A stretch of 64,000 bases of DNA from Microcoleus sp. bin48.metabat.b7b8b9.023 (lineage in GTDB: Bacteria; Cyanobacteriota; Cyanobacteriia; Cyanobacteriales; Microcoleaceae): assembly GCF_013299185.1 (NCBI RefSeq), contig NZ_JAAFKG010000010.1, forward strand, positions 1 through 64,000. The letters run 5' to 3'. Under the pieces are notes generated by a model that made no database searches, was not told where the DNA came from, and worked only from the letters and a program-made list of their open reading frames with translations. The stretch's first letter is position 1. Every line of letters starts with the position of its first letter. Both the position numbers and the translations under genes were made by a program. Shown here piece after piece: positions 36,479 through 38,484 of this stretch.

Positions 36479-36534
36479 AATTTCACCGATTTTTGCTATC
36501 CACCAATCACCGGACATAACTGGACAACCATTAA

Positions 36535-36726
36535 CTAAAGGTGAAGAGATAGCCAGCCTCAGTTACAACTACGTTTTCAGGGTGATGACACCTACAGGTA
36601 CTTTCCAGCCTGTGGCTCTGTCGTCAATCGTTAAACATCTGTATTTGGTTAAAGAAGTGCGGTTGACTCAACAAGCCCTGAAAACATTGGCGAGGAAAAC
36701 ATTACCCGAGCAATCGGAGGACGATT
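36535..36726 (+). ncRNA. Candidate omega (HEARO) RNA of the IscB locus
   Basis: IscB genes are preceded by a structured RNA (the HEARO/omega RNA) whose 5' end is the guide. The 250 bases between aroQ and iscB fit. AGAGATAGCCA (36546-) can pair with TGGCTCT (36612-36618) with a two-base bulge; GGTG-ATGA-CACC and ACAGG...CCTGT form inner hairpins; GTTGA-CT-CAAC follows near 36663. No ORF is present. The exact 5' end, and so the guide within about 36480-36540, cannot be fixed by eye. Confidence 0.65.
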
Positions 36727-38022
36727 ATGTCTAATTTTGTCTTCGTTTTAGACACAAACAAACAACCGTTAGATCCTGTAACTTCAGGTCTTGCCAGACG
36801 GATGTTAACTCAAGGTAAAGCAGCAGTTTACAAACGTTATCCGTTCACAATAATCCTGAAGTATTCCTGTGACAAACCGCAAACAAAGTCACACGAAATT
36901 AAGATCGATCCCGGCTCGAAAACCACAGGATTAGCACTACTGCAAGGTGACGAGGTAATCTGGGCAGCCGAGTTAGCTCATCGGGGAAATCACATCACTG
37001 GTGACTTAGCATCCCGATCCGCAATTCGTCGCAACCGCAGGAATCGCAAGACTAGATACCGTCAACCTAGGTTTCTCAATCGTACTCGCACTCCCGGATG
37101 GTTGCCACCTAGTTTAGCCTCAAGAGTATCGAATATTGTGACTTGGGTGAATCGATTGCGACGGTATGTTCCTGTAACAGCTATATCTCAAGAGTTAGTT
37201 AAATTCGACACCCAAGCCATGTTGGCTCCTGAAATATCAGGAATTGAATATACTCAAGGCGAACTAGCAGGTTATGAAATCCGACAATATTTGTTAGAAA
37301 AATGGGGCAGGAAATGTGCTTACTGCGGTGTAGAAAATACCCCTTTAGAAGTCGAACACATTCACCCTAAGTCAAAGGGAGGAAGTTCGCGGGTGTCGAA
37401 TCTGACTCTTGCCTGTAGAAACTGCAATCTGGCTAAATGCAATCGAGATATCAAAGATTTTCTCTCGGAAAAACCCGACATTTTATCGAGAGTTTTAAAA
37501 TTTGCTTGCTTGCCATTGAAAGATGCAGCAGTAGTGAATTCTACTCGATGGTCGCTGTTTGAGAAACTCCAACAAACAGGCTTGCCAGTAACAACGGGTA
37601 CGGGAGGGCGCACTCAGTACAATCGAACTCGAATGGGACTGCCTAAAAGTCACTGGCTGGATGCTGCCTGTGTAGGTGAAGTCGAACAACTGGTGATACT
37701 GACAAGGCAACCATTACTGATAACCGCTAAAGGATGGGGTAACCGTCAAATGTGTACGCCCAATAAATACGGGTTTCCCAACAAGCATAGAACTAGGTGT
37801 AAGACTTTTTTTGGGTTCCAGACTGGAGATATGGTGAGAGCAGTTTTGCCGAGTGGGAAATTTGCAGGTACTCATGTTGGTAGGTTGGCAGTTAGAGAGA
37901 GTGGAGTCTTTGATTTAAGGACAGCTTGGGGAAAAATTAGCCCCATGCGTCACAAATACTGCAAAACTGTTCACCGCAATGATGGTTATATGTATGGGTT
38001 TTCCACTCTTGTCCGCTATTAG
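36727..38022 (+). CDS. iscB: IscB RNA-guided nuclease
   Basis: The protein has 431 residues with GGAGG six bases before the ATG. Order: PLMP-like domain (about 10-45), RuvC-I with Asp61 (IKIDPGSKTTGLAL), an arginine-rich bridge helix (about 97-120), RuvC-II with Glu156 (ISQELVKFD), an HNH domain (about 190-245) with Cys197/Cys200, Glu210-His211 and Cys230/Cys233, RuvC-III with His309/Asp312 (SHWLDAACVG), and a C-terminal target-interaction region (about 330-431). All catalytic residues are intact. IscB is the ancestor-type relative of Cas9 and cuts DNA using an omega RNA. No tnpA transposase is in the window. It is likely a mobile IS200/IS605-related cargo. Confidence 0.95.
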   Translation: MSNFVFVLDTNKQPLDPVTSGLARRMLTQGKAAVYKRYPFTIILKYSCDKPQTKSHEIKIDPGSKTTGLALLQGDEVIWAAELAHRGNHITGDLASRSAIRRNRRNRKTRYRQPRFLNRTRTPGWLPPSLASRVSNIVTWVNRLRRYVPVTAISQELVKFDTQAMLAPEISGIEYTQGELAGYEIRQYLLEKWGRKCAYCGVENTPLEVEHIHPKSKGGSSRVSNLTLACRNCNLAKCNRDIKDFLSEKPDILSRVLKFACLPLKDAAVVNSTRWSLFEKLQQTGLPVTTGTGGRTQYNRTRMGLPKSHWLDAACVGEVEQLVILTRQPLLITAKGWGNRQMCTPNKYGFPNKHRTRCKTFFGFQTGDMVRAVLPSGKFAGTHVGRLAVRESGVFDLRTAWGKISPMRHKYCKTVHRNDGYMYGFSTLVRY

Positions 38023-38051
38023 AGGCGATTAGAGGCGTACCGATCGGATGA

Positions 38052-38079
38052 GGGCCGGTTTTAGATGGAAAACCAGCCC
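38052..38079 (+). repeat. Right-end hairpin of the IscB element
   Basis: GGGC-C-GGTTTT and AAAACC-A-GCCC form a stem with one internal mismatch around AGATGG, 30 bases after the iscB stop. Subterminal hairpins of this kind mark the right ends of IS200/IS605-type elements; it could also end transcription. Confidence 0.6.
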
Positions 38080-38120
38080 TTATATGTTTGGGTTTAATTA
38101 AAATTAATCAGAAGAATGGT

Positions 38121-38263
38121 TCAACAGTTGACAGTTGACAGTTGACAGTTGACAGTTTGAAGGCAACCTCTACCATTAAGTCCGAGAATTAGAGTAATAA
38201 ATAGTCTGATTTTAATTTCTCCCTCAAAGACTTGGGGCTTTCAACCAATTCTTTCTGGTAATG
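38121..38263 (-). repeat. Composite hairpin/heptamer element, copy 5
   Basis: On the minus strand: CATTACCAGAAAGAATTGG, a CCCC.AA / TTG.GGG hairpin, GAAATTAAAATCAGAC and four GTCAACT heptamers. It lies just outside the IscB right-end hairpin. The rest of the 462-bp gap (38264-38484) is short GGGTAAT and AATTCCC repeats. Confidence 0.75.
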
Positions 38264-38484
38264 GGCATCGGCTAAAGAGGGCATCGGGCATCGGGTAATG
38301 GGTAATGGGTAATGGGTGATAGTTACTTGTTAGTGATTTTTATAATAACCAATTCGCAATTCCCTGTTTGACCAATTCGCAATTCCCTATTCCCAATTCC
38401 CTGTTTGACCAATTCGCAATTCCCTATTCCCAATTCCCTACTAATTACCGATTACCAATTACTAGCAACTTGAGTTGAATTCAA

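What the first reader, a model, noticed from the sequence alone, without database searches (positions are those of the whole stretch)
36480..38080. Complete IscB locus with a candidate guide-bearing omega RNA
iscB has a full set of RuvC and HNH residues (Asp61, Glu156, Glu210-His211, His309/Asp312) and a strong ribosome binding site, so it appears functional. The 250-bp upstream gap has no gene but several nested stems, as expected of the HEARO/omega RNA, and a right-end hairpin follows the gene. No tnpA is nearby, so mobility in trans or domestication is possible. The guide should derive from sequence at the aroQ 3' flank.
Basis: partly seen in the sequence, partly recalled or inferred. Interest (0 to 1): 0.8.

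Follow-up and report, generated by a model that had tools for sequence, protein, structure and literature searches.

The report
IscB element inserted at HIP1 site
A cyanobacterium carries an intact, apparently recent mobile element encoding an RNA-guided DNA cutter of the IscB family, a known kind of system, but this branch lands inside HIP1, the short palindrome that litters cyanobacterial genomes and whose purpose is still debated.

Summary
It is a tnpA-less OMEGA element, a known kind. Corrections: the 'right-end hairpin' is host DNA, found in 19 of 26 same-genus aroQ loci; none of the 26 has the insert, which speaks against domestication; the element is 36496-38040.

The surprise is the target. 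In the 3 of 4 copies whose empty site could be read, insertion is G^CGATCG, part of HIP1 (GCGATCGC), without target duplication. 20 of 22 related copies abut CGATCG; 15 full-length ones form a clade with 100/100 support. Of 42 HEARO hits in this genome, 29 right junctions could be parsed: 27 ATGA. Mini-elements of 76-102 bp keep both ends and CGATCG, suggesting movement in trans; no transposase was identified. That IscB itself needs HIP1 as TAM is inferred; one IscB outside the clade shares the right end, so the transposase alone may set the target. I found no report of HIP1-targeting IscB, but key papers are not held. New variant of a known kind.

The parts
36479..36494 (+). guide-bearing left flank (host DNA right after the aroQ stop)
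   Evidence: Unrelated in the other copies aligned; 15 of 16 bases equal the empty site in L072, L073, L083; only exact match in the own genome; the one 1-mismatch site is not followed by GCGATCG
36495..36495 (+). target base G (first base of HIP1), also first base of helix P1 of the omega RNA
   Evidence: Present in the empty sites; the right end adds no second G; G in 20 of 21 other copies, one not resolved
36496..38040 (+). mobile element, 1545 bp, no target duplication
   Evidence: Left boundary from unrelated flanks of other copies; both boundaries from empty sites
36495..36705 (+). HEARO / omega RNA scaffold
   Evidence: Rfam RF02033 120.8 bits; 25 of 54 pairs with compensatory changes in 14 copies
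36716..36720 (+). ribosome binding site GGAGG
   Evidence: sequence
36727..38022 (+). iscB, 431 aa, RuvC and HNH residues intact
38023..38040 (+). right end AGGCGATTAGAGGCGTAC
   Evidence: Core shared with related copies and mini-elements
38041..38046 (+). CGATCG: pre-existing target (HIP1 core) and proposed TAM
   Evidence: Present in empty sites; at the right end of 20 of 22 related copies
38048..38083 (+). host hairpin, terminator-like stem of aroQ, now behind iscB; not part of the element
   Evidence: Same fold and energy in L073 without the insert; stem start in 19 of 26 relatives; not called by the terminator scan

Best explanation
It is a tnpA-less OMEGA element: a 1545-bp insertion made of an omega RNA and an IscB nuclease, moved in trans by a transposase encoded elsewhere. 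Its end-recognition machinery inserts it between the first and second base of HIP1 (G^CGATCG). The RNA starts in the host flank, so its guide is the sequence left of the landing site; once the element has left, the rejoined site is guide target + GCGATCG, and IscB can cut it so that repair from a copy that still has the element puts it back. In this picture HIP1 is both landing site and TAM, and the element is barred from cutting itself because it separates target from HIP1. Shown here: the parts, the ends, the pre-existing HIP1 half-site at three insertions, the conserved RNA fold, the shared junction of related copies, end-only derivatives. Inferred: the RNA's 5' end, cutting, TAM identity, re-homing, and movement by an unidentified transposase.
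For: HEARO and IscB hits. Empty sites: aroQ, GCGATCGG at the insertion point in 17 of 26 relatives; a second copy (G008:C108, right half in L159) inside a gene whose uninterrupted form reads GTCGAG(T/C)GCGATCGATCTCC in 5 of 6 relatives read, L162-L166; a third (G001:C80) whose empty form, readable in 1 of 5 relatives tried (L205), reads GTGTAGCGATCGAGG. CGATCG starts at 171 of 64000 positions of this window, so 3 of 3 by chance is about 2e-8. Right ends: 20 of 22 related copies abut CGATCG, 13 of the 15 in a tree clade with support 100/100. Mini-elements of 76, 95 and 102 bp and a 386-bp deletion form, all with G|CTAT and |CGATCG. A 22-base right-end pattern (which includes CGATCG): 43 matches in 20 of 98 genomes against 2 for the reversed control. 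13 of 13 related loci scanned have HEARO in front of iscB. In the main family the rule differs: at the rplF-rplR site 16 of 16 relatives without the insert have ATGA at the junction.
Against: No cutting, RNA or transposition was observed. No transposase for these ends was found (only relatives of seven own-genome Y1 proteins were looked for). No relative has the exact 16-base guide target (best 15 of 16), and 9 of 26 lack GCGATCGG there; one of six relatives at the second site (L167) lacks it too. The window's right flank also holds ATGA at 38048-38051, two bases past CGATCG; the other two mapped sites do not. Twelve of 14 clade-specific residues lie in the C-terminal domain, but a control clade shows the same (8 of 8; other controls 0 of 1, 2 of 6, 0 of 0, 1 of 1), and that domain diverges fastest anyway, so this does not single out a TAM change. 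One IscB outside the clade (L261, 56% identical) has the same right end and CGATCG, which ties the target to the ends rather than to this IscB. One related copy abuts TGATCG (L143) and one has lost the end (L137). One of four copies tried (G001:C26) gave no readable empty site. The mini-elements have no mapped empty sites.
Confidence: 0.7

Rival explanations
1. HIP1 is only the transposase's target; IscB's own TAM is looser (for example NNRR, which GCGA also fits) and the match to HIP1 is a by-product.
For: L261, an IscB outside the clade, shares the right end and CGATCG; mini-elements without iscB still abut CGATCG; OgeuIscB reads NNRR (PMC9640706, passages); C-terminal divergence is not specific to this clade.
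Against: In the IS200/IS605 systems known to me TAM and transposase target coincide (recalled, no call).
Confidence: 0.35
2. CGATCG is part of the element's right end and the empty sites carry it by coincidence.
For: CGATCG is common here (171 in 64 kb) and is at nearly every right end read.
Against: Three of three readable empty sites have it at the exact junction, about 2e-8 by chance.
Confidence: 0.04
3. A domesticated IscB doing host work at the aroQ locus.
For: Only full copy of this clade found in the genome, intact frame, no tnpA beside it.
Against: Absent from 26 of 26 same-genus aroQ loci found; close copies at other sites in a relative; the guide has no second exact target in the genome.
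Confidence: 0.05
4. A dead copy: intact by recency only, with no expression and no transposase.
For: No transposase found for these ends; promoter-like sites not above shuffles (4 found, mean 3.7 in shuffles).
Against: Full residues, RBS, compensatory RNA changes among related copies; insertion behind aroQ and ahead of its hairpin would allow read-through (inference).
Confidence: 0.15

Closest known systems
IscB / OMEGA systems with HEARO omega RNA (NCBIfam NF040563, Rfam RF02033)
   Same: Protein family, RNA family, gene order RNA-then-iscB, flank-derived sequence where the guide should be
   Different: Right flank is the HIP1 half-site CGATCG; the main HEARO family in the same genome has ATGA. 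IscB TAMs that I saw named are NTAAA, NWRGNA and NNRR (PMC13180657, PMC9640706, passages)
Other HEARO elements of the same genome (41 further hits, 33 of all 42 without iscB directly behind)
   Same: Omega RNA with its own left flank, movement presumably in trans; no duplication at the one site checked
   Different: Longer right end (about 85 nt behind the iscB stop in L033), T-rich tip and ATGA, often before an open frame; P1 GTCAG/CTGAC instead of GCTATC/GATAGC
IS200/IS605 elements
   Same: Insertion at a fixed short motif without target duplication; many carry an RNA-guided nuclease (recalled)
   Different: No TnpA in the element; no better-than-chance hairpin at the right end
SDR5 repeats in HIP1
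   Same: Precise insertion inside HIP1 (PMC4390886, passage)
   Different: SDR5 lies between the third and fourth base of HIP1; this element between the first and second, and it encodes a nuclease

Membership tests
IscB (RNA-guided endonuclease) | RuvC split by an HNH domain, catalytic residues present | tested here: met
IscB (RNA-guided endonuclease) | N-terminal PLMP domain and arginine-rich bridge helix | tested here: met
   NF040563 matches residues 5-317 over profile 1-314; RRNRRNRKTRYR at 101-112; the name-giving motif reads PLDP here and PLNP, PLEP or QLNP in some relatives
IscB (RNA-guided endonuclease) | C-terminal WED/TAM-interacting domain | tested here: inconclusive
   Beta-rich 369-427 in a model of pLDDT 69.9, pTM 0.54; best PDB matches are IscB-RNA-DNA complexes but with rmsd of about 13 A
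IscB (RNA-guided endonuclease) | Cognate omega RNA directly upstream | tested here: met
IscB (RNA-guided endonuclease) | RNA-guided, TAM-dependent cleavage | not testable with these tools
   needs biochemistry
IS200/IS605 | Y1 tyrosine transposase in the element | tested here: not met
   None of the genome's 10 Y1 hits is in the window; no match of seven own-genome Y1 proteins beside the copies searched. Not filed as an IS605 element
IS200/IS605 | Fixed target motif, no target duplication | tested here: met
IS200/IS605 | Subterminal hairpins at both ends | tested here: inconclusive
   Right end, folded as RNA, no better than shuffles (z 0.18); left end lies inside the omega RNA and was not judged as DNA
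HIP1-targeted insertion | HIP1 core present before insertion | tested here: met
   3 of 3 readable empty sites, of 4 copies tried
Domesticated IscB | Conserved at one locus across relatives | tested here: not met
   0 of 26 same-genus aroQ loci carry it

The most novel reading that the evidence does not exclude
A clade of IscB elements has switched from ATGA to HIP1 as landing site and TAM (RTGA to GCGA+TCG), so that HIP1, whose core CGATCG lies every few hundred bases here and has a methyltransferase reported to be almost coextensive with HIP1, is the licence for an RNA-guided nuclease; methylation of CGATCG may gate insertion or cutting, and the host's own HIP1 landscape sets where the element and its mini-derivatives can live.
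Probability: 0.5. Interest if true: 0.72.

Novelty: new variant of a known kind. Interest (0 to 1): 0.5.

Why it matters
HIP1 is strongly over-represented in most cyanobacteria and its role is unsettled (PMC4390886, passages). Here a clade of RNA-guided elements in several cyanobacterial families uses it as a landing site, at one fixed position, which gives HIP1 a concrete, testable partner. It offers an IscB with a predicted long, palindromic, methylation-prone TAM, a natural comparison of target switching (ATGA and HIP1 families in one genome), and mini-elements that narrow down the minimal ends, which should help to find the missing transposase.

Tried and rejected
Right-end hairpin as element end: rejected, it is in empty sites. 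Domestication: rejected. Guide aimed at a second locus: in the own genome one exact match (its own flank), one with a single mismatch, 35 with two, against 17 for the reversed control; of the 10 whose next bases I read, none but its own flank is followed by GC and none by GCGATCG; the other 27 were not read. C-terminal residue changes as proof of a TAM switch: weakened by controls. Transposase search: seven Y1 proteins of the own genome gave no tblastn hit in loci L101-L160 and none upstream of the right ends; no partner found, and a transposase unlike those would have been missed. Empty site of G001:C26: not readable. L261 left end: the region before its iscB holds a group II intron hit and no HEARO at threshold, so whether its left end matches is unknown. 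L038, a 47% IscB of the own genome with GCGATCG about 42 nt behind its stop, was left unresolved. Promoter and terminator scan: near shuffles. Structure model: too weak for residue-level mapping. Of 30 right-end loci fetched, 10 have iscB or a piece of it and 3 more are mini-elements; for the other 17 neither was found, and two of these lie at contig starts; some may be solo ends, some chance. The left end of L270 rests on a 15-base match; a short left-end motif alone would turn up by chance in some loci. Rows left out of the tree: partial frames, frames with stops, and two duplicates (L102, L151). Literature: Weinberg 2009, Altae-Tran 2021 and Meers 2023 are not held, so the ATGA/GTGA rule of HEARO elements and the TAM-target coupling are from recall. 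Listed papers that name both HIP1 and IS elements (for example PMC5101192, PMC6604393) were not opened.

Full report
What is there. The only Rfam match in the window at gathering threshold is HEARO at 36495-36705 (+), 120.8 bits against a cut-off of 83. Twenty-one bases further on starts iscB, 36727-38022, 431 aa, behind GGAGG. NCBIfam calls it guided_IscB at 446 bits (cut-off 175), Pfam finds RRXRR and HNH, and the best-scoring solved chains are IscBs. The RNA folds better than its shuffles (z -3.48), and in an alignment of 14 copies, two of which look identical, 25 of 54 predicted pairs show compensatory changes.

Where the element ends. The aroQ DNA was found in 53 of 59 genomes, the own one included. 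Of 28 same-genus relatives 26 had a match, and none of these 26 loci has omega RNA or iscB between aroQ and the next gene. Comparison with the empty sites gives ...AATTTCACCGATTTTTG | CTATCC...GGCGTAC | CGATCGGATGAGGG. The element is therefore 36496-38040 with no duplication, and CGATCG at 38041-38046 was there before: GCGATCGG is at this place in 17 of the 26; L072 has one change, and the other 8 do not show it. It now sits behind iscB, so the element has come between aroQ and its terminator-like hairpin; read-through from aroQ into the omega RNA is an inference. The scan did not class the hairpin as a terminator.

Other copies. A search of 386 genomes of the phylum with the element's DNA gave matches in 47, and a genome-contig scan with the protein gave 24 loci. 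Seven copies aligned at the left share GCTAT with unrelated flanks before it; a G precedes CTAT in 20 of 21 copies besides the window's, one not resolved. On the right, of 22 copies (19 loci, the window, G001:C80 and G341:C44) 20 have CGATCG directly after the right end; L143 has TGATCG and L137 has lost the end. Several of these 22 are partial and were placed by identity only. In an IscB tree of 44 full-length rows a clade of 15 (13 with CGATCG within 35 nt of the stop, plus L137 and L143) has support 100/100 and spans Nostoc, Scytonema, Westiellopsis, Brasilonema, Microseira, Limnofasciculus and Microcoleus.

Two further empty sites. G008:C108 carries a copy 97% identical over the RNA inside a gene; its right half is the contig end L159, which continues the same gene. 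Of six relatives read, five (L162-L166, one of them the own genome) show the uninterrupted gene as GTCGAG(T or C)GCGATCGATCTCC, so G^CGATCG again; L167 differs at this place. For G001:C80 five relatives were compared and one, L205, had a readable junction, GTGTAGCGATCGAGG, again G^CGATCG. A fourth copy, G001:C26, had no readable junction in the three relatives compared. CGATCG occurs 171 times in the 64-kb window against 12.6 expected from composition, so the chance of meeting it at three given points is about 2e-8.

Contrast in the same genome. The genome has 42 HEARO hits, 35 above cut-off; 9 have iscB directly behind, two of these cut by contig ends, and 33 do not. A parse of the right junction succeeded in 29 of 42: 27 ATGA, 1 GTGA, 1 ATGG; 13, the window copy among them, were not parsed. 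The site of one (L012; gene names rplF and rplR recalled from the translation) was read in 18 same-genus loci: two carry the insert, and of the 16 without it all have ATGA at the junction, 8 with the same last bases of left flank, AACA. From 17 of the 29 junctions a frame of 60 codons or more is open, against 154 of 693 background RTGA sites in the window, so many of these elements seem to sit directly before a start codon. That HEARO elements abut ATGA or GTGA was, as I recall, reported in 2009; the paper is not held.

Mini-elements and the missing transposase. A 22-base right-end pattern that includes CGATCG, two mismatches allowed, has 43 matches in 20 of 98 genomes, with 2 for the reversed control. 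Of the 30 loci fetched, 10 have iscB or a piece of it; L256, L270 and L274 are mini-elements of 76, 95 and 102 bp between G and CGATCG; L271 (386 bp, among the 10) keeps the RNA and an iscB tail. Their empty sites were not sought. Seven Y1 proteins of the own genome had no match near the copies searched. Movement in trans is therefore likely, the mover unknown. One IscB outside the clade (L261, 56% identical) has the same right end and CGATCG, which suggests that the ends and their transposase set the target.

How it most likely works. The RNA should start in the flank, so its guide is the left flank. Once the element leaves, the rejoined site is guide target followed by GCGATCG, which IscB should cut, driving repair from a copy with the element. 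If helix P1 begins at G36495, as the Rfam model and an invariant G-C pair suggest, the TAM would be GCGATCG; its GA at positions 3-4 agrees with the ATGA family and with the NNRR read by OgeuIscB (PMC9640706, passages). The switch would then be RTGA to GCGA plus TCG. All of this paragraph so far is inference. The C-terminal domain holds 12 of 14 residues specific to the clade, but of five control clades one has 8 of 8 there (the others 0 of 1, 2 of 6, 0 of 0 and 1 of 1), and this domain is the most diverged in general, so that is not proof. The window's flank also has ATGA two bases past CGATCG (38048-38051), which the two other mapped sites lack.

Known or new. IscB with HEARO RNA is known. 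HEARO nucleases seldom lie beside TnpA (PMC9755519, passages). HIP1 is over-represented in cyanobacteria, its function unsettled, CGATCG is the site of a common methyltransferase, and SDR5 repeats insert between its third and fourth base (PMC4390886, passages). I found no paper that joins HIP1 with IscB or with IS200/IS605 insertion in the searches; these were listings, and passages were seen only in PMC4390886 and PMC3497702. A paper that tested 144 IscBs has no ATGA, CGATCG or GATC in its main text (word-start search); its supplements were not read. So: a new variant of a known kind, well supported as to the landing site, open as to the TAM.

Noticed in passing
G000 genome-wide; L001-L029, L058-L069: 42 HEARO hits in one 7.5-Mb genome, 33 without iscB directly behind; 27 of 29 parsed right junctions are ATGA, often before an open frame, among them what look like rplR, fusA and mnmA (names recalled)
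   Followed up: partly
L221 (G004:C36) and L222 (own): The orphan HEARO element between rplF and rplR is shared by G004 and the own genome; the 371-bp right flank is 100% identical between them, while 16 other same-genus genomes are 86-94% identical there and lack the insert
   Followed up: no
L044 (G000:C98:32032-32487 -): A weak IscB match (30%, residues 4-156 only) in an open frame of 344 aa, behind a HEARO-like 3' end: may be IsrB
   Followed up: no
L281 (G003:C615:6600-9400), 861-937: Group II intron hit about 140 nt before an iscB whose omega RNA is not found at threshold: perhaps an intron inserted into an OMEGA locus
   Followed up: no
L278 and L280: Solo right end GCGATTAGAGGCGTAC|CGATCG behind the same gene in G001 and the own genome, no left end found within 700 bp
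   Followed up: no
window 38127-38155 and 38260-38460: Short tandem repeats (TGACAGT; GGTAATG and relatives) in the gap between the insert and the ADP-ribosylglycohydrolase gene; the gap's length varies between relatives
   Followed up: no
L131 910-957 (positions 10-57 of the query): A 48-bp repeat found in many copies across same-genus genomes
   Followed up: no
L038 (G000:C104:88853-90130): Divergent IscB (47%), intact, no HEARO at threshold, GCGATCG about 42 nt behind its stop
   Followed up: partly
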